From contig OZ038526.1 in assembly GCA_964036665.1 (NCBI GenBank), positions 12,028,001-12,092,000 on the forward strand: DNA of 64,000 nucleotides. The letters are read 5' to 3'. Numbering within the stretch: position 1 is the first letter of the stretch; every line of letters begins with the position of its first letter. Origin of the DNA: Gordius sp. MW1. Taxonomy: Eukaryota; Nematomorpha; Gordioida; Gordea; Gordiidae. The position numbers were made by a program, and so were the translations under genes. The notes under the pieces were generated by a model. That model did no database searches. It was not told the origin of the DNA and was given only the letters and a program-made list of their open reading frames with translations. Shown piece after piece: positions 38,723-64,000 of the stretch.

Positions 38723-38907
38723 TTCTTAAAGGAAAGATTAAATATTGAATTAATGGAAGCAATAAACCTAACTATTATCCATAATTTTTATAAAAATTAA
38801 AGTTTTAAATTGTACAAGTTTGGATGAGATTTTATCGATTTTCCAGTTTAGATGAAAGTCGATTTAAGGTGAAATATAGTTTATAACTATATTTTCCATA
38901 TCAAATA

Positions 38908-40455
38908 CTAGCTGACCCGGCAAACGTTGTTTTGCCATATTAAAAATATTAAAAAAAAAATTAAAAAATTGAAATAAGAAAATTTAAAACTACCAAAAAA
39001 AAACTTAAAAACTCAACTAAACGAAAAATAACAAATAATTGATATTTTTAAGGGTGGTTAAAAACACAAAATTTTACCTCAATAATGTTCGAATTCAAAT
39101 TTTCATGAAGCAAATTTTTTTTAAGTCAAATTTACCTATAATCAAAAAAAAATATCGCGCCTGGCCTTTATGATAAAATATAAACAAAAGGCGGATACGG
39201 ATACGCATATAGGTTATTTAACGAAAAATAACAAATAATTGATATCTTTAAGGGTGGTTAAAAACACAAAATTTTACCTCAATAATGTTCGAATTTAAAT
39301 TTTCATGAAGCAAATTTTTTTAAGTCAAATTTACCTATAATCATGGGCGTAGCCAGGTTTTGGATTAGGGGGGGGGCAAAACGTTTAAAAGTTCAATTAG
39401 AGGGGGGCAAAACATAAATTTTTCAAAGTTTTTGCATTGAAAAAAATTTGGTTTCGCAATTTAGGGGGGGGGGGCAGCCGAGGATTTAAATAAAAAAACC
39501 CTTAAAAATTAAAAAAAAATTATGTTTTGCCCCACCCCCTAATTAGCCAGGCAGGCGGGGGCAGGGGGCGCGGCTGCCCCCCCCCCTATTTGAACTTAAT
39601 TCCAATTAATACAGATGCTTATTAGCGAATTTACACAAAAATAAAAGATCACTATGGAAATCGTCAAATCTAACACGATTTCCATACACGGATCAATGCC
39701 ATCCAATTATATTTTAACGCGTTTTCTTTTTAATATTTTATTTACCAATGTTTACCCATGTGATTATTAGAATAAACTACTATTTGTTTAAAAAAAAAAT
39801 TGTTTTGGTAAAATAAAATTTAAATTACGGTTGCATGAAAATTTTTGGATAGTCGAGACCTTTTTTTTTTGCTCTCATGAAAATTGTTGGGTAGTCAAGA
39901 CCTTTTTTTTTAATCTGCCCCCCCCCCTAATTCAAAACCTAGCTACGCCCATGGATATATCAACATTTATTGGCACTTTGTTAAAAGTATTTTCATTTTT
40001 CTCCTTGTTTAACGTGCAAAAAATGACAAAATTAGATTTTTTAATTTATTTAGCCACGCAGGAGGGGGGGGGGGACACGACCGTCCTATAATAATAATAA
40101 TAATTGAAGCAAAAAATGGCTTTGATAGTGCGTAAAAAGTTTTCATTTACCGCAACACATGCCTACTGCATTTATCACCAGACTACCTACACGATAGTAG
40201 ATAGATAAGATACGCAGCAGTACGTGATGAGGGCAGGGCGTTTGATTGACGTTCGATACCGCGTCAAAACGCATAAAACCCAATATCTCAAAAACTACTC
40301 GACCGATTTGGCTGGAACATATATTAAAACACGCTCCGGAGTGGCGGGAATAAACTGTGAAATTTTGAGCCAAATCGGTCTGGTAGTTCTCCAAAAAAGG
40401 TGGCGCCATACATATATATATACACACATACATAGTTTCATTTTTATATATAAGA
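38908..40455 (-). mobile_element. Non-autonomous Helitron, copy 1
   Basis: Read on the minus strand, it starts TCTTATATATAAAAATG after A and ends ggcaaaacaacgtttgcc (hairpin), GGGTCAGCTAG before T. Insertion between A and T, the 5' TC and the 3' hairpin plus CTAG are Helitron hallmarks. It has no helicase. Internally a block of about 120 bp (gaaaaataacaaataattg to aagtcaaatttacctataatc) is present twice, and a G-run TIR element sits at 39343-39952. It is almost identical to the copy at 56862-58437, so it moved recently. Confidence 0.85.
39343..39952. mobile_element. G-run TIR element nested in Helitron copy 1
   Basis: The left end is atgggcgtagccaggttttg and the right end is aaaacctagctacgcccat. 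The ends are inverted. Inside, G or C runs of 7-11 nt alternate with gcaaaacataaatttttc- and ggcagccgaggattt-type blocks. The same insertion is present in Helitron copy 2, so it preceded the Helitron's duplication. Relatives are at 51244-51431 and 21030-21187. Confidence 0.7.
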
Positions 40456-41240
40456 TAATAATACATTTTACTAAAAATAGATTATAATGTAATGTATAAT
40501 TTACACTAAAGAGAAATTTTATTAAAAGTAGATATTTTCCGTGTTTTTTAAAATTTTTTTGATTTGTGTCATCAATTGATATGGGTGGTTTAAATGACTG
40601 AAATAAAAATAAACCAAATAACCGTAAATATATTATCACTTATGTTGGCACCTTATCTTAGTAGCATGGCACCCGAAGTACACGAGTACCCACCTCCACT
40701 GATTTTGATAGACCTTATATAAACCATTTACCAGAGACCAGAAAAGCCCGGCCCGCTGCCCGCCCAGCCAACGGGCCGGGCAACTATATTTTCAGGCGAA
40801 CCCGGGCGGGCACCATAACAGGATTCGGGTTTAATGAGATTCTTTTTTACAATTATTTTGTCATTTTTCTATTTGATAGGATAATAGGTATTCGTAGTTC
40901 CTTTTCAAGAGCACCGCCCGCTATAGGCCTGAAAAGCTAGATTTCTCACCCGAACCCGACACATAAAGTCAGAAAACATTAGCGATGTTAAATTTAATGC
41001 TTTAACAAATTGATTATTTGATTACAAAAATTATCAAAAATAATGAACTTCAAATTAAAAAATTGATTAAATGGAATAATATAAAAATAATCATAGATTT
41101 AGATATTAATTCTATAATATTATATGATGGCATATTTTTAAATAAAGCAGGTTATTAAAAATATTTTTTAAAAATATTTATTGTTCAAGTTATATAAATT
41201 TTCTAATAAATCCCATTTTCATTAAGATAGGCGGCACCCG
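40456..41240. other. Intergenic DNA with a GC-rich patch
   Basis: At 40745-40791 a GC-rich imperfect palindrome (agcccggcccgctgcccgcc, ccaacgggccgggca) stands out, with cgaacccgggcgggcacc and cacccgaacccgacac nearby. This looks like the end of a GC-motif DNA transposon, but matching ends were not found. The rest is AT-rich. Confidence 0.45.
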
Positions 41241-46900: not shown

Positions 46901-49900
46901 CGGTAAAAGTGGATATAAATTCACAAGAGTAAAAAAAACGAAAAAAAAATTTTCGAATCACATTTTGGCCAATGGTCATTTTTTTCCATTGGTCAGCAGC
47001 CAGGACACAATAAAAGTGGATATAAATTCATAATAGTCAAAAAAAACGAAATAAAAGTTTTCGAATCACATTTTGGCCAATGGTCATTTTATTCCATTGG
47101 TCAGCAGCCAGCGGACGGCCAAAAAGTCATAATAGCAATGGTAGGAACAGGAACAATCATAATAGTCAAAAAAAACGAAAAAAATAATTTCGATTCACAT
47201 TTTGGCCAATGGTCATTTTTTCCATCGGTCAGGAGCCAGCGGACGGCCAAAAAGTCATAATAGCAATGGTAGTAACAGGAACAATCATAATAGTCAAAAA
47301 AAACGAAAAAATAAACTCGGATGCACATTTTGGCCAATGGTCATTTTTTTCATTGGTCAGCAGCCAACGGACGGCCAAAAAGTCTTATTATCAATGATAG
47401 TAACAAGAACAATCATAAAAGTCAAAAAAAACTCCGGGATTCTAACCCAAAAACTAGTTAAATTGCATAGCAATTAAAAGTAAACAACTTTTATTTATGT
47501 TTATTATATAACATTGGTCAGCAGCCAGCGGACGGCCAAAAAGTCATAATAGCAATGGTAGAAACAGGAACAATTATAGTAGTCAAAAAAAACGAAAAAA
47601 ATGATTTCGATTCACATTTTGGCCAATGGTCATTTTTTTCATTGGTCAGCAGCCAGCGGACGGCCAAAAATTCTTATTATCAATGATAGTAACAAGAACA
47701 ATCATAAGAGTCAAAAAAAACTCCGGGATTCCAACCCCAAAACTAGTTAAATTGCATAGCAATTAAAAAGTAAACAACTTTTATTTATGTTTATTTATAA
47801 CTAGTTAAATTGCATAGCATTAAAAGTAAACAACTTTTATATTTATTATATAACCAAAACTAGTTAAATTGCATAGCAATTAAAAGTAAACAACTTTTAT
47901 TTATGTTAATTATATAACTAGTTAAATTGCATAGCACAACTTTTATCTATGTTTATTATATAATAGATAATTTAACAAATCTTATATATAACACACCGAG
48001 GGAGATAGAGATGAGGGGTGGGGCACCTCTTATGCATAGCAATTAAAAATAACACAGCGAGGGAGATAGAGATGAGGGGTGGGGCACCTCTTTCTCATCC
48101 ATTAATTTAAAAAAGCGATAACCTAATATACCCAATGCAAATAGATAGGGTAACGGACGACGGACGACGGACGACGGACGGACACCAAAAAACGATCCCA
48201 TAAATTGCATAGCAATTAAAAATATTAAGCCTAATGCTTTTTGTCTTTTTAATATAAATTATGCTTACCATTAAATTAAGGGTAATATAAAATAGTTATA
48301 TAGGACTAAAAGTCATGGGCAGCTACGTAAAATAATGATTATTTATAATATGACTTTTCATCTAAAGGCAAAACTTACATTAGGCCACCAGGATCCATTT
48401 GCAACACAGCATTGCCATTGCCAACCCAATTCATAATTTGTTCAAGTAATCTACATTAGAAAAATATAAAAAATTTCAAATAATATAGCTCAGCAAGTTG
48501 GGTTATAAGACATCATATAAAATTTAAAATCATATAAAAAGTAGTTAAAAACTGGTTTTATGGTATATTAGAATAATACAAAAACATTTTATTCCAAAAC
48601 ATTATTTTAATACAAATTTTTTTGGCCTTGAGCTTTGATCAATACTTTTTTAGTGAAAATTAAAGGTTAATTGAAAAAAGCCTTTATTAGATAAGGGTCC
48701 AAAAGTCAAATCAATTGTGAAGTTTTTGATAAAAAAATTTTGAAACAAGAAACACAAGTTGGACATAGAATATTACAAAGTTTGGCATAAAATGTCATAT
48801 TATTAACTATCCTTAAATGAATTTAAAGCACTTTAATATAAATACCTATTAAATTATACTAAATTATAATTAAATAACTAAAGTAGTAAGCCATAAAATA
48901 TAGTTAGCTTTTTTCAAGCTGTTTTTATTCAGGCAATAAGTTAGACTTAAAAGGCCCTTAATATAAAGTTTATCTTTTTAAATATCATAATCATTATTAA
49001 CAGACAATTTTTCATTTCTTTATAGCAAGCATTGTTTTTAATATTGTAACAAAAATTTATATATGGAAAATATTCATACGTTTCTAATCCTGTAACATGA
49101 TGAAATGGTGCTTGAGTATGATTTTCACTGAAAATCACAGAATTTAAAATTATTTATAATTACAAAGCAATTTTTAACATCTAATATATTTCTAAATGAG
49201 AGCAAATTATTTTTCATAAATTTAATGCAAATTGCAATACTTTATAATAAAAATTTAAGAATTAAATTTGTATTTCTCATAATTGAATATTTAAAACTCA
49301 TTCAAAAGAATGGTTATAGCACATAAAAAATGACATCTAAGCTTTTGACTATAAGTTAATAGAGATAGCTTAACTTGAAATGTTAACAGATTTCATTTGA
49401 CTATTTTAGATTAAGCCTTATATAATTGTAGAACAAAATTAGCCTTTTTTAAAATATCTTTAATTTTGTAAAGTAATAATTTAAATGCCACATTTATTAT
49501 AATTATTTTACATAGGTGGGATAACTATCTGGGGGAAAGAGCTTGTTTGAGCATTTGAAAAAGCACCCTGACTTTCATTAATTCTATTAGGGTTGTGTGC
49601 AGACTGTCGATAGTTTCCTGTAGGTGCAGGTGTAGGATGGGGATTTGTAGCTAATCCCCTTCTAAGAAAGTTTTGGAAGAAATTTGATGTAGGAGAATCT
49701 TCATTTTGAATACTTGAAGTAACTGGTGTCTGATTTTTTGCAGTAAATATATGTTAATGTCAATTAAATCAATAAAATAGAGATTTTTAACCTATAGAAA
49801 AAAAGGACTCTATATATTTTGGTACCTGATTAAGAGTTGCTTGATTAAATGGCTGGCCATTCTCACTATATTTTAAGCTTTTAAAAATAGTATAAAATAT

Positions 49901-50178
49901 TACCTGAGTAGAGGTGAAAATTCTTCAATAAAGCCTGTGTGGCAATGAGGGCATAAAAAATCCTAATTATATAATTATTGTTTCTTATAATTTTAATTTA
50001 AAATGTGTATTTGTTAAATTATTATTAAATAATCTATTATATATTATAACCAGGCAAATTATATGTCCCGTCCATAATATATTTTATAAATTTCATAATA
50101 ATTTACTGCGCTTGGTATCACTTCTCTAGCACATTGATGGCAAAAAAATTTCATAATTGGATTTATATCATCAACCAT
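43961..50178 (-). CDS. RNF126/RNF115-like RING-H2 E3 ubiquitin-protein ligase
   Basis: Eight coding exons (minus): 50178-50107, 49962-49904, 49865-49826, 49729-49512, 48450-48379, 45084-44858, 44774-44659 and 44347-43961. All are GT-AG with matching phases, giving 1191 nt or 396 residues. Exons 1-2 encode an N-terminal zinc finger (CHQC about 20 residues before CPHC), then IEEF, as in RNF126/BCA2. Exons 3-6 are disordered and end with DYAWGPGALENIMEQLFNQ, the conserved block before the RING. Exons 7-8 give a C3H2C3 RING: CSIC, CEHWFHKEC, and CPIC after the exon junction; the E2-contacting Trp is in PWLEL. A Pro/Ser-rich tail of about 120 residues follows. Family members ubiquitinate receptors and mislocalised membrane proteins, the zinc finger binding ubiquitin or BAG6. 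No in-frame ATG precedes 50178 before a stop. Intron 2 is 38 nt; intron 5 (3.3 kb) is full of repeats. Confidence 0.94.
45420..45625 (+). repeat. CUUCGG-hairpin repeat, copy 5 (RNF126-like intron 5)
   Basis: aactcgggccttcggccctc opens the copy. A GGGGAA-rich purine tract, cttctatactccgtataaac, gtagcatatttgctatgc and gaataccta-taggggg follow. It lies antisense to the host gene. Confidence 0.65.
45838..45897 (-). repeat. tRNA-His-like SINE segment
   Basis: On the minus strand: ggtatagtggttatagcgcc (A box region), cggcttgtgaactggaggtg (anticodon-arm-like, loop with GTG) and ggggttcaagtc (B-box-like). The order resembles tRNA-His(GUG), but the acceptor stem and the 3' half of the T arm are not preserved. 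It is a relative of 2213-2300. Confidence 0.5.
46085..46250 (+). repeat. Helitron 5'-region fragment
   Basis: aaagggctaaattcttaaac, taccagcccgattgctcg and aaactttacccgtaggt match the 5' region of the Helitron at 13193-13400. No 3' end belonging to it was found nearby, so it is a fragment in RNF126-like intron 5. Confidence 0.6.
46465..47450 (+). repeat. Repeat cluster F: CCAATGG hairpin array, duplicate of 12.1 kb
   Basis: The leading segment (tactttttaggttttctatg, gttggctgtctgttagacc) is shared with 12095-12260. It is followed by eight or so hairpin units with ttggccaatggtcattttt, ccattggtcagcagccag, either gacacggtaaaagtggata or cggacggccaaaaagtcat, and aaaaaacgaaaaa. Units with the two endings alternate. 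It lies within an intron of the RNF126-like gene. Confidence 0.7.
47450..47965 (+). repeat. Tandem 'aactagttaaattgcatagc' repeat
   Basis: The unit aactagttaaattgcatagc / aattaaaagtaaacaactttt / atttatgtttattatata occurs about five times, the last four in tandem with 55-70-bp spacing. The insert between the first and second copies is another CCAATGG hairpin unit. Confidence 0.7.
48000..48095 (+). repeat. Direct repeat containing the Foldback target sequence
   Basis: caccgagggagatagagatg plus aggggtggggcacctctt is present twice, about 53 bp apart. The same sequence, interrupted, flanks the Foldback-like element at 3490-3510 and 5248-5275. Confidence 0.65.
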
Positions 50179-50815
50179 GTATGTATGTAAAACTTTAAGC
50201 TCTAAACGCCAAAGAATCTTTCACGAGGTGTGATAATATAAATATCAGTAGGTCCTAAACTAAAAGAGATAAGAATAGATTAGCTAAATTAGTCTCTATT
50301 TTAAGTATTTTTCTGGATGGCATGTAAATCAGTTATTATTTGGTTCGCGTTACCACCCGAGCCCTCTCTTCATAATACCCGAACCGGAATCGTTTTAAAA
50401 CTTTATTACAATATTACATTAAAACAAGCCACATATATGGGGGTTGTAAGGTTTTCAATTTAATTTAGCCTTATGTAATGATTCTACGATATATGCTTAA
50501 CTTAATATTGTCTCCTCAGTGTGTTGATAAGAGAATATATTATGACTAATCAATTGTTTTAAGCCACACTAGAATTTATTCTTAGTCAACATAGCTAATT
50601 TATTATAAAAGTGGTAACAGACGCGCTCGATTAAACCCGCTGGTAAAAGAATTAGACACAATGTGTACCCCCATCATCAGTAGTCAATCGTGAGAAGTCC
50701 TCTTTGGCGTAAGGTCCATATTTGCTCATTTATCCTCCTTCATTTTATAAAACCTATCCAAAATTACTAAATGAGGAGCGTCTTGAATCTTTCTTTTCTA
50801 TAAATTTTTGTCACA
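50179..50815. promoter_or_regulatory. Upstream region of the RNF126-like gene
   Basis: This stretch precedes the start codon on the minus strand and should include its 5' UTR and promoter. No specific element is recognisable. Confidence 0.3.
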
Positions 50816-50945
50816 TTTAGTGATGCGAAAAATCCGAGAAAAATTTCAATCGTCTCGAAACATTGAAAAATTGGGTTGATATCGCGACTAGAATTTCATA
50901 CCTCATGACGAGATTGTATCGGCGAGATCTCAGCTTTTAAATTTC
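50816..50945 (+). mobile_element. Decayed left end of the hAT family
   Basis: ttagtgatgcgaaaaatcc, gagaaaaatttcaatcgtc and cggcgagatctcagctttt follow the same order as the left end of the complete element at 25993. The right end was not found. Confidence 0.6.
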
Positions 50946-51243
50946 CCAAATGATCATAATTATAAAATAATACATTTATTTGTGCATTTTTTATTATGTT
51001 ATTTCTTATTTAGATGTTAAATATAAATAAATATAATAGTAACATTTTGGATATTGAGTAATTTACCATAACCAAGTAGCCGCGTATAATTCAGATTTTA
51101 ATAATTTTGACTCGTTGAATGAAATATGAATGACCCCTAAGACATGTATCTAATATTTCAATATATATTGCATATATATATCCCTAGTATTAAAATATAA
51201 ACACACATAAATGAGTTTTGAGAAAGTAGTAAATATTCCTAGC

Positions 51244-51431
51244 ATGGGCGTAGAGTAGATAGGTTTTGGATTAGGGGTGGGGGGCGAAACGTTAAAAAGT
51301 TCAATCAGGGGGGAGGGCAAAATCTAAAATTTTTAATTTGTAAGGGTTTTTGCATTGGAACAAAATTTTTTTCGTCATTTAGGGGGGGGGGGGGGGCGGC
51401 CGTCTCCCCTGCCCCCCCTGGCTACGCCCAT
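51244..51431. mobile_element. G-run TIR element, short copy
   Basis: It runs from atgggcgtagagtagatagg to ctggctacgcccat. It has the family blocks ggttttggattagggg, gcaaaatctaaaatttttaa-type and a G14 run followed by cggccg. It is much shorter than the 610-bp copy in the Helitron. Confidence 0.65.
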
Positions 51432-51615
51432 GATTTCTAGAGCATCTTCAAATTTGGCAACAATTACATTATCCTCTCCTATAATGATATTTTGAATCGG
51501 TGGCTAACTAATCAAAATAATTATATAAATTTGGCTATACCGACTAAAGATTTTTTGAGTACCCCAACCAATTTTCTGCCTGCCGAACCATTGCCTTGAA
51601 ATGCATGATATTATA

Positions 51616-51792
51616 TTATGAGGCTACCGTCTTCCTTTTCAGCCTCAACTCATGGTACATCTCAGAAGTTCTCAAGTCATCATGAATTGTCAATCCGTTT
51701 ATCTGAATATTGTTGTATAAAAACGGTGAAATAGGATTGATAATGTTAGTAGAGGGAAATGGAACGCGATATTTTGGACATTTATGGTCCAT
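51616..51792 (-). CDS. Candidate small exon or gene, unknown protein
   Basis: On the minus strand an excellent splice-acceptor-like tract (ttttttccccctgaag) is followed directly by ATG and 58 codons to TAA. The peptide starts MDHKCPKYRVPFPS and ends RLKRKTVAS. It could be a terminal exon (the frame is also open upstream through the tract) or a chance frame. Codon composition is less AT-biased than the flanks. No family is recognised, and no partner exon was found. Confidence 0.3.
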   Translation of the reverse strand: MDHKCPKYRVPFPSTNIINPISPFLYNNIQINGLTIHDDLRTSEMYHELRLKRKTVAS

Positions 51793-53085
51793 CTTCAGGG
51801 GGAAAAAAGGAGAAGATGAAAAATGAAGTAAAGTGATTATTGTTATAGTTGGCCAATTAAGATTTGGAAGTAATCTAATTAAGCGTGAGAAACTAGTTTC
51901 CGTCTGCGGGAGATTCATAATTAAGCGTGAAAAACTAGTTATCGTATGTGATTAATGGTTTGTTTAAGGCACTAATTAGAAGCAGACGAATATGTAAAAG
52001 TATAGAAAGACAAAAAACACCATGATAATATTATTTATTAATTATTGATAAAGATATTATAGAACCGTGATATTATGAACGTTAATCTTTATTACTTACA
52101 TAAATTCCGAATATAACAATTAATACGAACGTTAAAAGACTATAAGGTAAAAAAGATGAGTGGCGAGATTACATTTACAATGGGAAAACAGATAAAAATG
52201 ATGTGGGTAAAACAAATGGAAGAGTGTCTGTATGTTTGTTGTCTTCTATCTTTTATACCACGATGGTGTCAACAACACAACAACATCAATACCAATAGTG
52301 CTTCCCCATCGATGTATAATGCGCATCATTAAATGGCTTGGCGTGATTGACGTGTAAATAAGTGAATTGATATGACTGACGTGTAGCGCGCACCAGTAAC
52401 TGAATAGATATACGTACGGCGATTACCACAAAAAGACATCCCTCATTGAGATGTTTTTAACTATTAAGGCAACCCTCATGCAAATTGAGAAGCGCATCGA
52501 CAGGGTGTATAAGGCTGGAATTTCACACGGCATTAAATTAATATTTTTTTTCTATCTCTACCTAGTAACCGTTCGAAAAACTAAACTTCCCTTAAATCAA
52601 ATACGTTCGCTGATCCTTAGACATCACCCGACCTAGCCTTATTGGTTGCACGGATATTTCCCTCTGCCATCGTCCCACATTGATCTTTATAATCAGAATA
52701 TCCTTATCCGATCGATATCATTTTTATTTGTTTACCAATTGTTCGTATTTATTTGTTTGCTAATAAAAGGCCATAATTTGCGGATATTATACTGGTAGCA
52801 CGAGTGAAAATAAAAATCTCTTTCAATCCCGAGCCACAGGATTCGAGGCGCTAAACGTTCAATTTGCGTACAAAAAGAAGAGAAAAAGGACCACGTAAGT
52901 TCCTTAAAGTTTTCATTTTAGTAATAATGGAAAAATCTTTACTTGTTATGATTATTTTAATATTAATTTTTAAAATTAGTTTATATAATTACTCCTTTAG
53001 ATAAACTTTAATTAAATTGTTGGTGTCAACGCTATAAATTAATTTTGTTTATTTTTTATCGATCATTTATCTTAATTTTATTATC
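51793..53085. other. Intergenic DNA, possibly LTR/leader of the Gypsy element
   Basis: No exon is seen. The region immediately left of the Gypsy-type coding remnant should hold its 5' LTR and primer-binding site. The LTR cannot be confirmed because the 3' LTR lies outside the window. Around 52845 gattcgaggcgctaaacg is a possible LTR/PBS border, weakly supported. Confidence 0.3.
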
Positions 53086-54398
53086 ATGTTTGTGCCAAAA
53101 GCTTCGTTTAATTTTATTAATTTTGTTATAAGCGAAAAGATGTTTTTCATGGTTTTAGTACTGATAATAATTGTAATATTTTTGGTAATGCAGCGCGTGG
53201 AACAAATTTATAGGGTTAGGACCTCGGTCCCGCGTTGTTTTTATTGCAATATTGGGGCACTTCAGGCGCAATTGTAGATTGTTTAATAATTTTCAAAATA
53301 ACACAGCTCATTATAGACAACGCTCGTGGGACCCATATAGGCGACGGGGTGGTAACGTTCACTTAGATAACGATATTCAGGGGAATAATAATAATTTTGG
53401 TGTCAGGGGCACGCAGGAAAGTTTTTTGAATCCTGGGCCGGGTAATTTTAATTGACGCTCGATTGGCGCTGACATGACAGCACTAATATTGTTTAGATTA
53501 ATTTTTTGATTCTCCACAAACCCCGGTAGTTAATTTAGATATTGAAGGTAAGTAAAATAAATTTTTTAGTAGATTCTGGGGCTTCAATTTCTATTATAAG
53601 TATATATAATTTTTTAAAATTATGGCCTTTTAAACACATTAATATAAGTTACGTTTTAGTAAAACAAATAGACGGATCGAATATTAAATTAGGGAGTACC
53701 AAAGTTCAAGTATGTGCAGGCGAGGAAGTTTTGGAATTAGAGTTATTTATTATCGATGAGAAACTAGATAATATTATGGGTTGGAATTGGATAAAATTAA
53801 TTGGTCCTCTAGTTAATTGGTGGGACATTTGTAAAAATTCCACGTATAATAGGGATAGAAATATGAAAATCAATTGTTTAATTAATAATGCTGATGACCA
53901 TGCAACACCCGGTTACAAGGTAGCATCTATAAACGAGCATAAATCCAAGGTTGTTATTAATAAGGCAATGGACTCAGTAAATGAGCCAGCCTGGGTTTTA
54001 GGGGCAAAGGTTTTCGATAATAAGCCTACGACCTCTGGTTGGGTTGATTGTGATGGTCAGTACGTCGGGAGACTGTTGCATTATAACATTGATAGAATTA
54101 AAGTGGAATATAATGAAATTTTTCGTGAAGAACTAGGTTGTTTGAACGATAATATTTTTTCGATAAAGGTTAACTCAAATGCAATTCCTCGATTTTGCCC
54201 TGCCCGTCGAATACCATTTATGTGGATTGATAAGGTCAATAACGTTATAGATGGTTGGTTAAAAGATAATATTATTGCGCCAATAGAGTATTCTGAGTGG
54301 GCAACTCCGTTAGTTCCCGTTACGAAAAATGACGGTAGTATACGTGTGTGGGCTGACTACAGAATCACTATTAATAAACATGTGATAGATGTTAAATA
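53086..54398 (+). pseudogene. Ty3/Gypsy-type retrotransposon gag-pol, 5' part (host of the nest)
   Basis: A zinc knuckle (CFYC...GH...C at about 53237-53277, broken by a frameshift) is followed by an aspartic protease start (FLVDSGASISII, about 53557-53595) and the beginning of reverse transcriptase (PARRIPFMWIDKVN, then EWATPLVPVTKNDGSIRVW). The frame runs into the target duplication of the RTE element at 54382-54398. RT resumes at 63006. In the ancestor, gag packages RNA and pol copies it. This copy is inactive because of frameshifts and the insertion. Confidence 0.85.
54382..54398. repeat. Left 17-bp target duplication of RTE copy 4
   Basis: gtgatagatgttaaata is repeated exactly at 62989-63005. 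Removing the RTE plus one copy restores continuity of the Gypsy RT reading. Confidence 0.9.
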
Positions 54399-54715
54399 AC
54401 ACTATCTACGACGGTCCCAAGTCCGTGTGCAAAAAGTGGATGGTTGACGTCAGGTCGGAAATCGGCTATATAAACCAACTCCAAAATTATGGTTTTAAAC
54501 CAGATTTTACAAGAAAAGGCTAGGGCGTCCTCCACAAACGACGCGCACTGCATACCCCGCCCGTGCAATGTGAAAAATACACTAGGGTTACTGCCCAACT
54601 TACAACAAAGGCGGTTAAGGAAACTAGTTGTGGAAAGAATGCGAATTACGTGCTGGAATGTGGGAACGTTGACGGGGAAGAGCATCGAGGTCGCAAAAAT
54701 GCTAAAAAGAAGAAA

Positions 54716-54720
54716 GGTAC
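54716..54720. repeat. 5-bp target duplication GGTAC of the inner LTR element (left)
   Basis: GGTAC occurs at 54716-54720 and again at 60428-60432, directly outside the two LTRs. Confidence 0.88.
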
Positions 54721-55073
54721 TGTCATATATGTCATATATATGAGTTTGGGGAAAGAGTCGTTGAAGACTGGCAATCAGAGGCATGGGGGTAATTACCAGA
54801 TGCTGGACGATAGTAAGCGGGGAACAAAGGAAATATAACAACTGGCGCAGTAACGTAAAAGACTCGAGGGATAATAACAACTGGCGCAAGACATAGAAAG
54901 GAAGAGATTCGTATCAGAGACAAAGGAGTTAATATCATCGAATATAATCATTAGTTAATTTCCCTACAAACGATATACTATCCTTGTATTATGTGAACAA
55001 CGCAATTTGAATTTGATTTGTATTGGAGTTTGAATAAAGTGAATAGTTCATAAATATTTTTGGAGATATAATA
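54721..55073 (+). repeat. 5' LTR of the inner retrotransposon
   Basis: 353 bp, starting tgtcatatatgtcatatata and ending tttttggagatataata. Comparison with 60077-60427 shows six or so substitutions plus a 2-nt length change. Confidence 0.9.
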
Positions 55074-55074
55074 T

Positions 55075-55087
55075 TGGCGCCCAACGT
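55075..55087 (+). other. Primer-binding site
   Basis: tggcgcccaacgt starts 2 nt after the 5' LTR, the position and TGGCGCC form expected for a tRNA-primed minus-strand start. The tRNA species was not determined. Confidence 0.65.
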
Positions 55088-55440
55088 AAGTTGAACCCCC
55101 CTAACCACTGTTGATATTTGGAATATTCTAAGACACAAATTTGGTCAAAAGTGGGAAAGAAGTATAATAACGCGGCAATTTGGGACAAGTGTGATTATTC
55201 GGTGACCTCAAAAGTGGGAAAGAAGTTTAATAACGCGGAAAAGGGACAAGCGTGATTATTCTGTGACCTTGAAATTGGAAAAGTTGTTACTCAGTCGAGG
55301 AAACGAGTTACGATTAGGTAAGTGTATGATAAAAATTGTGAGTGTTGTAATAATAATTATTGTATATATATATTGGGGTGAAATTAAAAGAAGATTGTGT
55401 AAAATATTATTAAGCATTATCATTAGATTTCTCATCAACA

Positions 55441-55728
55441 ATGTATATTAAGCGGGAATATGTGTTAGATTATTATGTATATTTAATTGTTTTTTGTGTA
55501 GGGTTTTTATGTAATGTATGCATATCTTGTATTATGGCTGGTTTTAAAAAATGTGCAACGTGTGAAGGGCGAAAGTTGGGTAATAGCAACAATTTAAAAT
55601 GTTACAAATGTGGGGAGTTAGGGCATGGAATGAGGTCATGTCCGAGAGTTAACCAAGAACTTATATGTTTTATTTGTCGAGGAGAAGGGCATAGGTCGAG
55701 AGAATGCCCTAGGCGCGTTGGGGCATGA
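55441..55728 (+). CDS. Gag nucleocapsid-like protein with two CCHC zinc knuckles
   Basis: A 95-residue frame. The first about 30 residues are hydrophobic (VYLIVFCVGFLCN), then come CYKCGELGHGMRSC and, 15 residues later, CFICRGEGHRSREC. Both match CX2CX4HX4C, the RNA-binding knuckle of retroelement nucleocapsid. No matrix or capsid domain is apparent upstream in the 360 nt after the PBS, so gag is reduced. The ATG at 55441 is the first in frame; a start at 55534, just before the Cys-rich part (MAGFKKC), is also plausible and would omit the hydrophobic stretch. Confidence 0.75.
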   Translation: MYIKREYVLDYYVYLIVFCVGFLCNVCISCIMAGFKKCATCEGRKLGNSNNLKCYKCGELGHGMRSCPRVNQELICFICRGEGHRSRECPRRVGA

Positions 55729-55929
55729 CTAAAGGAAGGGGGAACTATATTTTTGCATGCTGTTAATTGGTTTTTTATTTTGTATATAAAACTATATAAA
55801 TTAGTTCTTGTTAATATTATAAAAGTAGTAGTTCTTTATATTTCATGTATGTATTGCTTATTACGTGGGCTAGTGCAAACTTATTTTTATTTAATTGGAT
55901 TAGAATTAAACTTGTATTATTTTATATGG

Positions 55930-56485
55930 CGCATTAGCCTTAAATGTTCGAGAAAAACAGTAAGGGCGACGTGTTTATTTAAAATTGGGTACGGCTTAAT
56001 AGAAGGGAGGTGGAAATGGATCGATACATGGTCGAAGGAATTTAACTGGGGGGCTTTGGTGAGGAAGGGGGATGTTGAGAAATTAAGATTATGCGTGAAT
56101 TTTCGGTTAACTCTTGACCAGTGCGTAAGTGATGTTAAGTATTCCCGGCTCCGGTTCAAGGAAATTGTAGCACAGTTGGGTGGCTGTCGATGGTATTCGA
56201 AGATCGATTTGGGCCAGTGCTTATGTACAATTGCCTGTTTCCGGGAGGACCAGTGGTTATTTAACCATCGACACATACAAGGGGTTATTTGCTTATCTTC
56301 GGCTGCCATTTGGGCTCAGTGGGTCGGAGGCAATAAACAAGTGCAAAAAAGGGGAGCATGTGGAGATGAAGGTATTTATTGCTAAAGTCAAATGGACCCC
56401 AAGGATAGTGCGGAAAGTTGATAATTGCAAGATGTGGATAAGACATGTTTGGACAGGACTGAAGATTTTAATTAATATAGCTTAG
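55930..56485 (+). pseudogene. Broken reverse transcriptase fragment of the inner LTR element
   Basis: Motifs of Gypsy-type RT are seen in two overlapping frames: LRLCVNFRLTLDQCVSD, GCRWYSKIDLGQC, then, after a frameshift near 56220, TIDTYKGLFAYLRLPFGLSG. The frame then passes directly into unrelated residues and stops. The YxDD catalytic region is absent, so the enzyme cannot work. Confidence 0.8.
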
Positions 56486-56559
56486 TCTTTGTATACCATT
56501 CGACACTATTGTATTATATATATGTTACATGTTATTCTAAATTTATTATACTATAATCA

Positions 56560-56745
56560 ATAAAAAAAAAAAAAAAAAAAAAATTAAAAAAAAAAAAAAA
56601 AAATAAATAAAAAAAAAATAAAATAATAAAAAAAAAAAAAATAATAAAAAAAAAAAAAAAGAATAAAAAAAAAAAAAAAAAAATTAAAAAAAAAAAAAAA
56701 AAATAAAAAAAAATAAAAAAAAAAAAAAAATAATAATAAAAAAAA
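56560..56745 (+). repeat. A-rich tract
   Basis: About 185 nt of nearly pure A broken by single T's and one or two G's. A similar tract lies at 58636-58702, on the other side of the Helitron. Apparent frames here encode only Phe or Lys runs. Confidence 0.9.
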
Positions 56746-56861
56746 ATCGGGAAGAGAAAGTGGAGAAATTGTATTTCTCATGTTTGTTTTGGAAATTGAT
56801 TGTATATGTGGATAAAGTGTATTATGGATAAAGTGTATTAAGTTTTGTATTGTATTGTATA

Positions 56862-58437
56862 CTAGCTGACCCGGCAAACGTTGTTTTGCCATAATAAAAA
56901 TATTAAAAAAAAAAAAACTAAAAAATTTAAATAAGAAAATTTAAAACTACCAAAAAAAATTTAAAAACTCAACTAAACGAAAAATATCAAATAATTGATA
57001 TTTTTAAGGGTGGTTAAAAACACAAAATTTTACCTCAATAATGTTCGAATTCAAATTTTCATGAAGCAAATTTTTTTTAAGTCAAATTTACCTATAATCA
57101 AAAAAAACTATCGCGCCTGGCCTTTATGATAAAATATAAACAAAAGGCGGATACGGATACGCATATAGGTTATTTAACGAAAAATAACAAATAATTGATA
57201 TCTTTAAGGGTGGTTAAAAACACAAAATTTTACCTCAATAATGTTCGAATTTAAATTTTTATGAAGCAAATTTTTTTAAGTCAAATTTACCTATAATCAT
57301 GGGCGTAGCCAGGTTTTGGATTAGGGGGGGGGGGGGCAAAACGTTTAAAAGTTCAATTAGAGGGGGGCAAAACATAAATTTTTTAAATTTTTCAATGTTT
57401 TTGCATTGAAAAAAATTTGGTTTCGCAAATTAGGGGGGGGGGGGGGGGGCAGCCGAGGATTTCAATACAAAAACCCTTAAAAATTAAAAAAAAATTATGT
57501 TTTGCCCCACCCCCTAATTAGCCAGGCAGGCGGGGGCAGGGGGCGCGGCTGCCCCCCCCCCCCCTATTTGAACTTAACTCCATTAATACAGATGCTTATT
57601 AGCGAATTTACACAAAAATAAAAGATCACTGTGGAAATCGTCAAATCTAACACGATTTCCATATACGGATCAATGCCATCCAATTAGATTTTAACGCGTT
57701 TTCTTTTTAATATTTTATTTACCAATGTATTTTACCCATGTGATTTTTAGAATAAACTACTATTTGTTTTAAAAAAAAATTGTTTTGCTAAAATAAAATT
57801 TAAATTACGGTTGCATGAAAATTTTTGGAAAGTCGAGACCTTTTTTTTTTTTTGCTCTCAGGAAAATTGTTGGGTAGTCAAGACCTTTTTTTTTAATCTG
57901 CCCCCCCCCCCTAATTCAAAACCTAGCTACGCCCATGGATATATCAACATTTATTGGCACTTTGTTAAAAGTATTTTCATTTTTCTCCTTGTTTAACGTG
58001 CAAAAAATGACAAAATTAGATTTTTTAACTTATTTAGCCACGCAGGAGGGGGGGGGGGGGACACGACCGTCCTATAATAATAATAATAATTGAAGCAAAA
58101 AATGGCTTTGATAGTGCGTAAAAAGGCTTCATTTTCCGCAACACATGCCTACTGCATTTATCACCAGACTACCTACACGATAGTAGATAGATAAGATACG
58201 CAGCAGTACGTGATGAGGGCAGGGCGTTTGATTGACGTTCGATACCGCGTCAAAACGCATAAAACCAAATATCTTAAAAACTACTTGACCGATTTGGCTG
58301 GAACATATATTAAAACACGCTCCGGAGTGGCAGGAATAAACTGTGAAATTTTGAGCCAAATCGGTCTGGTAGTTCTCCAAAAAAGGTGGCGCCATACATA
58401 TATACACACATACATAGTTTCATTTTTATATATAAGA
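56862..58437 (-). mobile_element. Non-autonomous Helitron, copy 2
   Basis: Same termini as copy 1 (minus strand: TC start after A, hairpin and GGGTCAGCTAG before T), same internal duplication and same nested G-run element. It is inserted in the interior of the LTR element. Differences from copy 1 are mostly homopolymer length and scattered single-base changes. Confidence 0.86.
57299..57936. mobile_element. G-run TIR element nested in Helitron copy 2
   Basis: Ends atgggcgtagccaggttttg and aaaacctagctacgcccat lie at the same position within the Helitron as in copy 1. Confidence 0.7.
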
Positions 58438-58628
58438 TCTGTGAAATTGTATTGCGTTTGCGAAATTAAGTGTGTATGTGCTTTGGAATATAAAATGGTA
58501 TTGTATATCTCTGATTTTGGTGTATTTATCTATAGAATGTTTTTAACCGTTATATGTTGTAATTATATATATTTTATATTTTTATTATGTTTTAAATAAT
58601 TATATTCCACTTATGTTTAAACCCCCTT

Positions 58629-58635
<7 letters not shown>

Positions 58636-58662
<27 letters not shown>

Positions 58663-58702
58663 AAAAAAATTAAAAAAAAATAATAATAATAAAAAAAAAA
58701 AA
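58636..58702 (+). repeat. A-rich tract right of the Helitron
   Basis: A run of 26 A's followed by A-rich sequence with TAA/AAT repeats. It has the same composition as 56560-56745. Confidence 0.85.
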
Positions 58703-58919
58703 TTAAATAAGATATAGAAGGGGAGGTGAGGTATGGTTGCGATGTTATATATGTACGCTTATATTTGGGACGTGTTGTAAGTCCCCAGTTGTATGTATGT
58801 GTGGAGGTACTATTTCGATTTTATATTGGCATTCTCGTAATTAGTTACAAAAAGGGGTTAGTATCATTGTATCACCAGTTTTATATTGGATGTAGCTGTG
58901 TTGTCGATGCAAACCGTTA

Positions 58920-59660
58920 AAAATTTATAACGGTGGATGTGAGATAGCGTTGCTAGGTCGCGATTTGTTTCACGGAATATGTACTTATATTCTTATATTG
59001 TACTTTATTGTCTCATATTTTTATTGTATATTTTTATTCACATAATTTTTATTGTATATTCTTACTCTGTTTATATATTTATATCACATCGTTCGTGTAA
59101 ATTTAGCTGTGACCGTCAAAGATTTATAACGGTGGATGTGAGATAGCGTTGCTAGGTCGCGATTTGTTTCACGGAATATGTATTTATATTCTTATATTGT
59201 ACTTTATTGTCTCATATTTTTATTGTATATTTTTATTCACATAATTTTTATTGTATATTCTTACTCTGTTTATATATTTATATCACATCGTTCGTGTGGA
59301 TGTAGCGGTGTTGTCGATGCAAACCGTTAAAGATTTATAACGGTGGATGTGAGATAGCGTTGCTAGGTCGCGATTTGTTTCACGGAATATGTACTTATAT
59401 TCTTATATTGTACTTTATTGTCTCATATTTTTATTGTATATTTTTATTCACATAATTTTTATTGTATATTCTTACTCTGTTTATATATTTATATCACATC
59501 GTTCGTGTGGATGTAGCTGTGTTGTCGATGTAAACCGTTAAAGATTTATAACGGTGGATGTGAGATAGCGTTGCTAGGTCGCGATTTGTTTCACGGAATA
59601 TGTATTTATATTCTTATATTGTACTTTATTGTCTCATATTTTTAGTGAATGTGTATATAC
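58920..59660 (+). repeat. 211-bp tandem repeat in the 3' untranslated part of the LTR element
   Basis: tttataacggtggatgtgag recurs at 58924, 59123, 59334 and 59545 (spacings 199, 211, 211). Units contain gatagcgttgctaggtcgcg, gatttgtttcacggaatat and tttattgtatatttttattc. The fourth is cut short. The array lies between the last coding remnant and the polypurine tract. Confidence 0.88.
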
Positions 59661-60049
59661 CCTTATTGTTTATATATGTCTATCTCATCGTTCGTGTAAC
59701 GGTAGTGAGTTATTGAGGGAAGTCGTCTAAAGGTGTATGAAGTCAAATGTGAAATATCGCAGTTGTCGCGCTATTTTTATTAAGGAAATTGTGAGTATCG
59801 CTATTTTTATAACGGAAAGTATGAGTGTAAAATTATAATGATGTGATAATATTGTATCTTTTTATATCGCGCACCATTATTCAAATAGATGTATTTATGA
59901 GGGTGCCGTGAAAGGGAGGCATCAGGGTGAAGGGTAGGCGCGTATGTTATATGTATCGATACGGTGATGTGATGAGATTGTGAGGGAACACTAAAAAATA
60001 ACGGTACGAGAGATGTCAGCGAATAGAAGGGGCGATAAATGTCAGCAAG

Positions 60050-60076
60050 AAAAGAAAAAGGAATAAAAAAGGGAGG
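60050..60076 (+). other. Polypurine tract
   Basis: aaaaaggaat, aaaaaagggagg ends immediately before the 3' LTR, the expected site of plus-strand priming. Confidence 0.75.
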
Positions 60077-60427
60077 TGTCATATATGTCATATATATGAG
60101 TTTGGGGAAAGAGTCGTTGAAGACTGGCAATTAGAGGCATGGGGGTAATTACCAGATGCTGGACGATAGTAAGCGGGGAACAAAGGAAATATAACAACTG
60201 GCGCAGTAACGTAAAAGACTCGAGGGATTAACAACTGGCGCAAGACATAGAAATGAAGAGATTCGTATCAGAGACAAAGGAGTTAATATCATCAAATATA
60301 ATCATTAATTAATTTCCCTACAAACGATATACTATCCTTGTATTATGTGAACAACGCAATTTGAATTTGATTTGTATTGGAGTTTGAATAAAGTGAATAG
60401 TTCACAAATATATTTGGAGATATAATA
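60077..60427 (+). repeat. 3' LTR of the inner retrotransposon
   Basis: 351 bp, starting tgtcatatatgtcatatata and ending atttggagatataata. It is nearly identical to 54721-55073 and is followed by the second GGTAC. Confidence 0.9.
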
Positions 60428-63005
60428 GGTACACATTGCCTGCCTACAAGAGACTAGGTGGAACGGAACCAAAGCCCGGGAGTTAGGTGAAGGCTACAAA
60501 CTATTCTACAGTGGGTCATCAAATCTTAGAAACGGGGTCGGTATCGTTCTAAGCGAATCGTTCAAAGACAAGGCGGTCGAAGTCAAGCGTTGTTCCGACA
60601 GGCTAATGTGGGTGAAGATTGCAGATTAAGGGGGCCTCCTAACCGTTATGTGCGCGTATGCTCCCTAAATTGGGTGTTTGGAATCAGAGAAAGACATATT
60701 CTTCGATTCATTGGAAAAGGAAATACAAGGAATAAGACAGGAAAAAAGGCTAATTACTGGGGCAGATTTTAACGCCCACGTAGGGAAAGATCGCCTCGGG
60801 TATGAACGCAATCATGGAGGCTATGGGCATGGTCTGAAGAACAAAGAAGGGGAAAAACATCTCCAAGTATCCCAAGCATTTGACATGGCGATCATTAACA
60901 CTTATTTTCAAAAGCGCGTAGATCATATTGTGACCTATAGAAGTGGGAAACATTTTAGTATTGACTATTTGCTTTAACGGCGAAAGGACTTATGGAGTAT
61001 CAAGGATTGCAAAGTAATACCGGGAGAAGAAATCGCCTGGCAACATCGTCCCCTTGTTATGTATCTTGAGAAGAGTATTTCCCGAAAGAAGAAATACGTC
61101 GACGAACGAAGAGCCTCTTCACTCTTGGGTGCAATGAAGTTGACATAGGACGTAGACGACGATTGGGAGACGCTATCTAAAGACATTAAGGAAACAGCGA
61201 TTTGTGTTCTAGGAGAGTCCAAAGGAGGCAAAGCTATGAATAGGGAACTATGGTGGTGGGATCAATCGGTTAAAAATTTCATCGAAAGAAAGAAAAATCT
61301 ATATAGACGGTGGCATAAATCAAAAATGTCGGAGGATTATCAAGAGTATAGAGACGCAAAGAGGGCCGCAAAAAAGGCCGTAGCAAAAGCGAAGAATGCC
61401 GCGTACACGGAGATGGCAAACAAACTGGATCATAAAGGGGGCGATAGGCTTATGTATAAATTGGCCAAGATAAGGGAGAAGAAAAGTCGCGATGTCGGGG
61501 TTCTTAAAATAGTCAAAAACGAGAAGGATCAAACCTTATTCAAGCCGAAAGAAGTGATGGAAAGGTGGAAAGGATATTTTAAGAAACTTATGAATATTGC
61601 AAATGACAAGGATTCCCTTCCCAAAATTGAGCCAAATAAGTATGGTCGAACTCTTTCAGGAGGATAAAGTTAGGACACAAATGAATAAGATGCAAAAAGG
61701 AAAAGTAAATGGTCCAGATGGAATATTTATAGAAGCATGGCTCGGATGTCGTGAAGAAGGAGTCACCACCATGACGAACCTCCTTAACAAGATATTAGTA
61801 GAAGAGCGAGTTCCTAATCAATGGAGATCAAGCACGATTGTACCCTTATTTAAAGGCAAATCAGGACTGTGGCAATTACAGAGGTATCAAGCTAACTTGC
61901 CACTCTTGAAGCTTATGGAAAGGATCTTAGTAACATCTAACAAGGCTGAAAAACGAGGTAGATATATCGGCTAATCAATTCGGATTTGTGGCCGGCAAAT
62001 CTACAATCGACCCAATCTTCGCACTAAGACAAATGATGGATAAGTATGGTGAAAAGAGGAAAGACCTACATATGGTTTTTATCGACTTGGAGAAAGCTTA
62101 TGACACGGTCCTCCGCGATTTAATATGGTGGTGCCTGAGGAAACAAAATATCCCTGACGCATATATACGGCTTATGAAAAATATTTATGAAGCCTCAAAC
62201 TCTTGTGTTAGGACGACAGTTGGAGACTTTAAACTTTTTCGTGTTAATATTGGATTACATCTAGGCTCTGCTTTAAGTTCCTTTTTATTTAATATAAAAG
62301 CCGAAAAGTGGTCAAAATGGTTTAAAGGTCAACGATCGAAAAACGGTATACATGGAAAACAGGAACCCCATCGCTGGATGAACATCTAAAGTACCCAAAA
62401 GTAGACAGGTTTACATACCTCGGCTCGATGCTACATCAAGAGGGAGGTTGCGCAACGGAAGTCAATGCCGTGATCCAAAAAGGATGGCTTAAATGGCGAG
62501 TGTGCGACAAGAAAATGCCAATATGGTTGAAGAGCAAAGCTTACAAATCCATCGTAAGACCGGTGTTACTCTATGGAAGTAAAACATGGGCATTAAACAC
62601 CACAAAAGGAAAGCTATTACAAGCCACAGAGATGAGAATGATACGGTGGAGCTTGGGGTATACTAAGCTCAACCATATGACGAATGACCTTCTCATGACA
62701 AAAATGGGTATTTATTTAACCTATGGCGGACATGATTAACGAAAATCGGCTAAGGTGGTATGGGCATAAAAGAGACACGGATGACGTAAATAGAAAAGTA
62801 GGGACATGGAGGTACCGGGGAAGAGAGGAAGAGGACGACCCCGTGTCACGTGGAAAGAGCAAGTCGATAAAGTTATGGAAACTAAAAAGATTAGTCAAGA
62901 CATGGCACTCACCCGGTCAAGATGTCAAAAACTTATCAAAACAAACCCCACGAATGTGGGACCAAATAACTGATAAAGAAGAAGAAGAGTGATAGATGTT
63001 AAATA

Positions 63006-64000
63006 CCCCCTACCCATAATAGAAATGTTTTTTTAGCTAATTTAAAAGGTTCTAAAGTCTTTTCAAAAATAGATCTTAGGAATGCCTACCTTCAGTTACG
63101 TGTAGATGATAAGACCTCTAAGATTTTAACAATAAACACCGATAGAGGTTTGTTTGCTTTTAAACGATTACCTTTTGGTTAAGTGTGTCTGCGCCAATTT
63201 TTCAACGAGCGTGGCTTCTATTACTAATAATTTAGATGGCATATTTTTGTATTTAGACGACATATTAGTAACGGGTTCAACGCAAGCCGAGCATGACTTA
63301 CGATTTTTGGTGTAACCGAAATTACTTATTTAGGACATATAATTATCGATAAAATTTAATTCGATTAAAATTAAAACTATTAAAAATATTTAGAGGCCTA
63401 ATAATAGAAAAGAGTTATCCTCGTTTTTAGGGCTTATGAATTATTATAGCAGATTTATTGATAACTACACGAAGTATTCTGGTCACCTATATGAATTAAC
63501 TAAAGATAAGTTTTATTTAAATGGGAAGAAAAAGAAGACCGATGTTTTAATTATTTGAAAATTATTTTGTTAAAAGATTCCATCTTAAAAGTTTTGATCG
63601 GAGTAAAGAGCACATCTAAAATCTTGATGCATCCAACACGGGTATAGGGGGAGCTTTATGTCAGGTCGAGCATGGAATTGAACATCCTGTAATTTATTTT
63701 TCGCGCAAACTTAATAGAGCGGAACGTACACTGTAACTGAAAAAGAAGCGCTTGCTATAATATTTGGTTTAAAACGATGTAGAGAATATTTAAGAGGCAA
63801 GACCTTTACCGTTTTTACCGATCACAAGCCTTTAATTAATTTATACCAAAAGATTAATACTGAATACTTGATTTCCCCACGTTTGCAAAGGTGGTTATTA
63901 ATACTTGGTAATTTTTCTTTAACATTAAAATATCGTAAAGGTAAAATAATTGTTTAGCAGACGTTTTGTCGCGTATGAGTGGTAATAACGAGAAATCTGA
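63006..64000 (+). pseudogene. Ty3/Gypsy-type pol, 3' part: RT core and RNase H (continues past the window)
   Basis: This continues the coding remnant that stops at 54398. RT motifs are KVFSKIDLRNAYLQL (about 63053-63100), GLFAFKRLPFG and the catalytic YLDD at 63250-63261. RNase H begins near LDASNTGIGGALCQV (about 63621) and keeps TDHKPL (about 63818). Stops or frameshifts occur at about 63180, 63220, 63315, 63340, 63555 and 63736. Integrase and the 3' LTR would lie beyond 64000. Confidence 0.86.

What the first reader, a model, noticed from the sequence alone, without database searches (positions are those of the whole stretch)
53086..64000. Five-layer nest of mobile elements with readable insertion order
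A Gypsy-type pol is split by RTE copy 4 (17-bp duplication gtgatagatgttaaata). The RTE is split by an LTR element (GGTAC duplication). The LTR element holds a Helitron, and the Helitron holds a G-run TIR element. The two retroelement junctions have exact duplications and the host reading resumes after each, so the order is directly readable. All four major eukaryotic element types (LTR, LINE, Helitron, TIR) are in one stack.
Basis: partly seen in the sequence, partly recalled or inferred. Interest (0 to 1): 0.7.

Follow-up and report, generated by a model that had tools for sequence, protein, structure and literature searches.

The report
Nested transposons, innermost layer not youngest
Several mobile DNA elements sit one inside another here, which is common; the one instructive twist is that the innermost element arrived already inside its carrier, so the nest cannot be read simply from outside (oldest) to inside (youngest).

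Summary
The nest is real. Junctions close on uninterrupted copies in the same genome: outer Gypsy-type element in 6 of 7 fetched copies through one 17-mer, LINE in 5 of 5 through one GGTAC. Four near copies of the LTR element run straight across the Helitron site and three more diverged ones also lack the Helitron. The order Gypsy, LINE, LTR element, Helitron is supported. The last step is misread. The Helitron with the G-run TIR element inside is one amplified unit: a second copy lies at 38.9 kb, 27 of 27 full-length copies aligned carry it, and its right junction occurs exactly at 195 places, this one included. TIR-free relatives exist but are more diverged (K2P 0.17-0.23) than a second TIR-bearing unit (0.06). 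So the TIR element entered the Helitron before the Helitron entered this LTR element, and probably before the LTR element entered the LINE (LTR pair K2P 0.017). A further insertion, an inferred solo LTR, lies at 52001-52430, outside the finding. All element kinds are known and nesting is ordinary. The modest point of interest is a hAT-like/Helitron chimera that has itself spread.

The parts
51841..54398 (+). Outer Gypsy-type element, left part (5' region, protease, start of RT), interrupted by the LINE and by an inferred solo LTR
   Evidence: Homology to L002, L003 and others; RVP exactly at the Pfam cut-off (E 5e-4); best-scoring other genome copy 88% identical
63006..64000 (+). Outer Gypsy-type element, right part (RT remainder by eye, RNase H), continuing beyond the window
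   Evidence: RT_RNaseH E 9e-17; Integrase_H2C2 in L074 just beyond the window; contiguous with the left part in 6 of 7 fetched copies
52001..52430 (+). Inferred solo LTR of another LTR family in the 5' region of the outer element, flanked by AAAAG at 51996-52000 and 52431-52435
   Evidence: Absent at that place in L002 and L003; 18 of 40 other genome matches run exactly over query 1-430 and several lie as same-strand pairs 3-5 kb apart; flanks read; no internal region of the family was read
54382..54398 (+). Left copy of the 17-bp target-site duplication of the LINE
   Evidence: present once (0-2 changes) in 6 of 7 fetched uninterrupted copies
54399..54720 (+). RTE-like LINE, 5' part; full-length 5' end at 54399
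   Evidence: 30 of 39 other matches scored start exactly at 54399 (best 40 of 1469 candidates scored); 5 of 5 fetched copies continue across GGTAC
60433..62988 (+). RTE-like LINE, remainder (RT), interrupted by stops; 3' end at 62988
   Evidence: RVT_1 E 3e-12; 20 of 39 other matches scored end exactly at 62988, 16 more within 7 bases (best 40 of 2619 candidates scored)
62989..63005 (+). Right copy of the 17-bp target-site duplication
54716..54720 (+). GGTAC, left 5-bp duplication of the LTR element
54721..55073 (+). 5' LTR of the inner LTR element
   Evidence: family LTRs; K2P 0.017 to the 3' LTR
55074..56861 (+). Inner LTR element, internal left; holds a 64-aa two-zinc-knuckle ORF at 55534-55728 and fragments that look like RT by eye
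   Evidence: zf-CCHC E 5e-10; ORF compared with 8 other held copies; the RT-like piece had no Pfam hit
56862..58437 (-). Non-autonomous Helitron with embedded TIR element: 5'-TC at 58437-58436, CTAG-3' at 56865-56862, A/T target
   Evidence: Exact empty site 56861|58438 in L042, L046, L047, L048; A on one side in 28 of 28 and T on the other in 27 of 28 copies with both ends found
56873..56890 (-). 6-bp-stem hairpin 11 nt upstream of CTAG-3'
   Evidence: weak: z -1.5, 20 of 200 shuffles fold at least as well
57176..57299 (.). Internal duplication of 56976-57100 that ends at the TIR element; inferred to have replaced its left flank
   Evidence: 96% over 125; D6, D10
57298..57937 (.). hAT-like TIR element (CATGGGCG...CGCCCATG) carried as a passenger inside the Helitron
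58438..60076 (+). Inner LTR element, internal right, with four copies of a repeat spaced 199-211 bp at 58887-59732
60077..60427 (+). 3' LTR of the inner LTR element
60428..60432 (+). GGTAC, right 5-bp duplication of the LTR element
38905..40456 (-). Second copy of the same Helitron+TIR composite, outside the nest
   Evidence: 95.7% over 1586 aligned bases, TIR element at the matching place

Best explanation
A decayed Gypsy-type retroelement took an RTE-like LINE insertion (17-bp duplication), which took a short LTR-element insertion (5-bp duplication), which took a rolling-circle Helitron insertion between A and T (no duplication). Shown: these junctions and their empty states. The Helitron belonged to a subfamily that already carried a hAT-like TIR element, so the fifth layer was inherited, not added here. 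Shown: many copies of the loaded Helitron with one shared right junction, and TIR-free relatives. Inferred: a hAT-like element inserted beside GATATATC in an ancestral Helitron; its left edge was later remade, in the subfamily here by a template-switch copy of 125 bp; that subfamily then spread by rolling-circle copying, in part as head-to-tail tandems.
For: Empty sites: Gypsy 6 of 7 fetched copies, LINE 5 of 5, LTR element 4 exact plus 3 more diverged copies without the Helitron, of 7 spanning the site. Five-base duplications in 3 of 3 other two-LTR copies of the family. Divergence falls inward, though measured in different ways: outer element 12% from its best-scoring copy, LINE K2P 0.065 from three young copies, LTR pair 0.017, Helitron unit 1.2% from the majority of its kin. 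Composite: second window copy; 27 of 27 full-length copies with the TIR part; 195 exact right and 83 exact left junctions genome-wide, both counts including this one, with 0 in reversed-pattern controls. TIR-free units L076 and L078 with both Helitron ends and native sequence through the right junction. Free-standing TIR elements: 8-bp duplication 8/8 in L026, L035, L047, 7/8 in L056 and at window 51243, 4/8 in L010.
Against: No reads were available, so an assembly fault is excluded only by exact duplications and empty sites. The TIR element inside the Helitron has no intact 8-bp duplication (4 of 8 match), and two exact patterns for a simply empty TIR site found none. Its left edge is of at least three types in held units (32 like the nest, 2 and 1 of others, 1 without a left end, of 36), and L032 seems to hold two TIR starts, so the history of that edge is more complex than I can resolve. 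Host and TIR divergences correlate only weakly over 378 pairs (r 0.11), and the TIR part is somewhat less diverged (mean K2P 0.019 against 0.027); a star-like burst could give the first, the second is unexplained. The 27-of-27 sample is biased because the query held the TIR element. That the TIR entry predates the LTR insertion rests on few differences (6 of 351; 27 of 480) and equal rates. The hairpin is not significant.
Confidence: 0.87

Rival explanations
1. One reading: each layer inserted in turn, the TIR element last, into the Helitron already resident here.
For: Physical nesting; the TIR family also exists alone with 8-bp duplications.
Against: The same TIR element at the same place in a second window copy, in 27 of 27 aligned copies, and the same right junction at 195 places.
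Confidence: 0.02
2. The TIR sequence was picked up by Helitron copying (capture or template switching), not by hAT transposition into the Helitron.
For: No intact duplication around it in the Helitron; no simply empty site by exact pattern; variable left edges.
Against: Its outer ends are the same as in free-standing copies with 8-bp duplications, and the right edge is exactly at native sequence of TIR-free units.
Confidence: 0.12
3. The nest is an assembly artefact joining repeats.
For: All parts are repeats; no reads could be inspected.
Against: Exact duplications at both retroelement insertions and exact empty sites at three nested junctions are what insertion gives, not what a misjoin gives.
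Confidence: 0.02

Closest known systems
Canonical Helitrons (Helibat1/Helraiser, Nat Commun 2016, PMC4778049; passages seen)
   Same: TC start, CTAG end, insertion between A and T, short palindrome 11 nt from the 3' end, head-to-tail joints with TC joined directly to CTAG
   Different: No long coding frame; carries a hAT-like element; hairpin here is weak by energy
Non-autonomous insect Helitrons (Hel-2, BMC Genomics 2015, PMC4344730; passages seen)
   Same: Short, non-autonomous, TC/CTAG ends, A/T flanks
   Different: Sequence relationship not tested; passenger TIR element
hAT or Hornet elements inserted into Helitrons of Fusarium oxysporum (Mob DNA 2016, PMC5148889; passages seen)
   Same: hAT element inside a Helitron
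   Different: That paper found no evidence that its chimeric elements had transposed; here the shared right junction is at 195 places
Nested-element chronology (REANNOTATE, BMC Genomics 2008, PMC2672092; passages seen)
   Same: Nesting used to order insertions
   Different: Its rules (nesting level reflects temporal order; an LTR element's age is an upper bound for what lies within) fail for the innermost layer here if its entry into the Helitron is the event counted

Membership tests
Helitron (canonical) | 5'-TC and CTRR-3' termini | tested here: met
   Minus strand TC...CTAG; both ends found in 28 of 30 loci
Helitron (canonical) | Insertion between A and T without target duplication | tested here: met
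   A in 28 of 28, T in 27 of 28 (in L016 and L017 the A, and in L032 the non-T, belong to an abutting unit); exact empty site in 4 near copies of the LTR element
Helitron (canonical) | 3' hairpin near the end | tested here: inconclusive
   6-bp stem 11 nt from the end, z -1.5
Helitron (canonical) | RepHel protein in the element or a partner | not tested
   Longest frame in this unit is short; the autonomous partner was not sought
hAT superfamily | 8-bp target-site duplication | tested here: met
   Six free-standing relatives: 8/8 in 3, 7/8 in 2, 4/8 in 1; the copy inside the Helitron itself 4/8
hAT superfamily | hAT transposase or mobilisation by one | not tested
   Partner not sought
LINE, RTE clade | APE-type endonuclease and RT in the element | tested here: met
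   Exo_endo_phos in relative L071; RVT_1 in the nest copy
LINE, RTE clade | RT phylogeny within RTE | not tested
Gypsy (Ty3) LTR retrotransposon, outer element | Protease, RT/RNase H, integrase in that order | tested here: met
   RVP at cut-off and RT_RNaseH, Integrase_H2C2; the same order is found in Bel/Pao (recall), so this excludes Copia but not Bel/Pao
Gypsy (Ty3) LTR retrotransposon, outer element | Paired LTRs | tested here: not met
   No direct repeat between 49001-54398 and the next 4.5 kb, only a 93-bp inverted match; taken as a truncated copy
LTR retrotransposon, inner element | LTR pair with short fixed-length duplication | tested here: met
   LTR pair; 5-bp duplications here and in 3 of 3 others
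LTR retrotransposon, inner element | Full pol | tested here: not met
   Only zinc knuckles recognised by Pfam in the two pieces searched; three other two-LTR copies have LTR starts only 3.2-3.3 kb apart, so the short form is shared and taken as non-autonomous

The most novel reading that the evidence does not exclude
Picking up the G-run hAT-like element, and the template-switch duplication beside it, may have helped this Helitron subfamily to spread (for example by altering copying or termination), so that the chimera, rather than either parent, is the successful element; the nest then shows a true inversion in which the innermost layer predates the LTR layer two levels out.
Probability: 0.12. 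Interest if true: 0.4.

Novelty: new member of a known kind. Interest (0 to 1): 0.25.

Why it matters
Nested insertions are used as a relative clock. Here the clock runs correctly for four layers and fails for the fifth, because a rolling-circle element carried a passenger. Nest-based chronologies should test whether an inner element is shared by other copies of its carrier before counting it as a younger event. The locus also gives clean empty sites for three insertion mechanisms in one stack.

Tried and rejected
Rejected: TIR element as the last local insertion. Rejected: LTR element amplified with the Helitron inside (none of 7 spanning copies other than the nest has it). Dropped: GGTAC as significant by itself (21 occurrences in the window). 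Tried without result: Rfam over 52500-64000 at gathering thresholds (no match); an LTR pair to date the outer element (none); literature search for four end motifs (one irrelevant paper); a search for papers on transposing Helitron-MITE composites (none with 4 of 6 terms); exact patterns for a simply empty TIR site (0 matches). The pattern was badly designed, since it also matches TIR-bearing copies (375 places in all), but its first five loci proved to lack the TIR end at the junction. In one search two further units (L032, L027) came out empty because of a faulty cut and were not compared. L021 and L033 of the 30 loci were dropped because both ends were not found; 26 of 29 loci plus the second window copy passed the length filter. 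An early idea of mine, that one simple deletion explains the left edge of the TIR element, was given up.
Full report
What was checked. The window is part of contig C8 of an unnamed 212-Mb, 12-contig genome. I tested each junction of the claimed nest by aligning each flank separately to other copies of the same element in the same genome. Genome searches score only the best candidates (40), so copy counts are lower bounds; the pattern counts are whole.

Outer layer. A Gypsy-type element runs from about 51841 past the window end. A protease piece (exactly at the Pfam cut-off) lies left of the insert and an RNase H piece right of it; an integrase zinc-binding piece lies just beyond the window. 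The best-scoring other copy is 88% identical. In 6 of 7 fetched copies (L002-L007) the sequence is continuous across 54398/63006 and holds the 17-mer once, with 0-2 changes; L008 has a deletion there. No direct repeat that could be an LTR pair was found between 49001-54398 and the next 4.5 kb, only a 93-bp inverted match, so this copy cannot be dated by its own LTRs.

Second layer. The LINE's 5' end is full-length: 30 of 39 other matches scored start exactly at 54399. Its 3' end is at 62988: 20 of 39 other matches scored end there and 16 more within 7 bases. Five fetched copies (L069-L073) lie in different flanks and all run continuously through one GGTAC. Four of these five differ from each other by at most one of 760 bases; the fifth, L072, was compared without gaps and could not be judged. 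So the family was active recently, while the nest copy differs from three of them by K2P 0.065. A relative encodes an APE-type endonuclease and the nest copy an RT. The RTE clade name was not tested.

Third layer. The LTRs are 353 and 351 bp and differ at 6 of 351 aligned sites plus one 2-base gap, K2P 0.017. Three other two-LTR copies have perfect 5-bp duplications (CTACT, GACAT, CCTGT). Their LTR starts lie 3.2-3.3 kb apart, against 5.36 kb here. The only Pfam domain found in the two pieces searched is zinc knuckles.

Fourth layer. Four near copies of the LTR element (L042, L046, L047, L048) run from 56861 straight to 58438 with no base gained or lost; three more diverged ones (L057, L065, L066) also lack the Helitron, with 2 to about 40 bases unaligned at the site. 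The inserted unit reads TC...CTAG on the minus strand. In 28 of 30 fetched family loci both ends were found; 28 of 28 have A on one side and 27 of 28 T on the other, with the exception and two of the As due to directly abutting units. Head-to-tail joints occur in L016, L017 and L032, and abutting units are listed; the same TC-to-CTAG joint is described for Helitron circles (PMC4778049, passages). The hairpin sits 11 nt from the end but is not significant.

Fifth layer. The TIR element is not a local insertion. A 95.7% identical composite lies at 38905-40456. Of 27 full-length other copies aligned, 27 hold the TIR part over at least 606 bases; mean K2P to the nest copy is 0.018 for it and 0.022 and 0.036 for the two host parts. 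That sample is biased because the query contained the TIR element. Over 378 pairs the TIR and host divergences correlate only weakly (r 0.11) and the TIR part is the less diverged (0.019 against 0.027); a star-like burst would explain the first, and I have no explanation for the second. Genome-wide, the right Helitron/TIR junction occurs exactly at 195 places and the left one at 83, this locus included, with 0 in reversed-pattern controls. Five loci chosen only as the first in the list all lack a TIR end at the junction and read native sequence there; two of them have TIR-like words elsewhere within 500 bases. Two of the five (L076, L078) have both Helitron ends, 810 and 841 bp, with A/T flanks. 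Over the host part right of the junction, K2P to the nest copy is 0.17 (L076), 0.23 (L078) and 0.23 (L079), but 0.06 for a second kind of TIR-bearing unit in L020. So the simplest reading is one entry of the TIR element between those two splits. Of six free-standing TIR elements found in held sequence, three have 8/8, two 7/8 and one 4/8 duplications, which suggests hAT.

The left edge of the TIR element. In the subfamily of the nest the left flank is a second copy of 56976-57100, joined at short shared words (AACGAAAAAT at one end, ATCA at the other). Of 36 right junctions in held loci (nest duplicates left out), 32 have this left edge, two (L020, L032) have GCAGAATATATAT, one (L027) has CAATATCATAAT and one (L038) no left end in 900 bases. 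Both other words also occur in TIR-free units, where they lie 261-308 (L076, L078) and 39-63 bases (L075, L076, L078) from the junction; in L075 and L079 the first word, and in L079 the second, lie farther off, and L077 has neither. L032 seems to hold two TIR starts. I infer repeated deletion or recombination and one template switch, but the exact path is not resolved. It does explain why the simple empty-site patterns failed.

Order. Supported: Gypsy, LINE, LTR element, Helitron. Separate and earlier than the Helitron's arrival: TIR into Helitron. If rates are equal, the two TIR-bearing kinds split at about 0.029 per lineage (half of 0.058) and the LTR insertion is at about 0.009 per lineage, so the innermost element probably predates layer three; the small counts make this probable, not certain. 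It cannot be placed relative to the LINE insertion.

Literature. A nest-order tool states that nesting level reflects time (PMC2672092, passages). hAT-in-Helitron elements were seen in Fusarium without evidence that they transposed (PMC5148889, passages). The listings of my searches (12 of 50 papers, 10 of 304, none) showed no direct precedent for a spreading one; that is no proof of absence.

Verdict. A genuine, cleanly readable nest of known element kinds; ordinary in type; one step of the claimed order is wrong for an instructive reason.

Noticed in passing
52001-52430: Inferred solo LTR (430 bp, AAAAG on both sides) in the 5' region of the outer element; absent there in L002 and L003.
   Followed up: yes
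55534-55728: 64-aa ORF with two CCHC zinc knuckles in the short LTR family; open in L041, L063, L064 and L065 as well as the nest copy, broken in L040, L050 and L067, partial in L055.
   Followed up: partly
58887-59732: Four copies of a tandem repeat spaced 199-211 bp inside the LTR element; other family members seem to have fewer.
   Followed up: no
L069, L070, L071, L073: LINE copies in different flanks that differ by 0-1 of 760 bases, a sign of very recent activity.
   Followed up: no
L016, L017, L032; G000:C8:36297325-36300407: Head-to-tail tandem Helitron units with CTAG joined directly to TC (loci); abutting units at the C8 place.
   Followed up: partly
51243-51432: A 190-bp free-standing relative of the G-run TIR element with a 7/8 target duplication.
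   Followed up: yes
51706-51798 and L074:1502-1594: A 93-bp inverted match (92%) on either side of the whole outer element, origin unknown.
   Followed up: no
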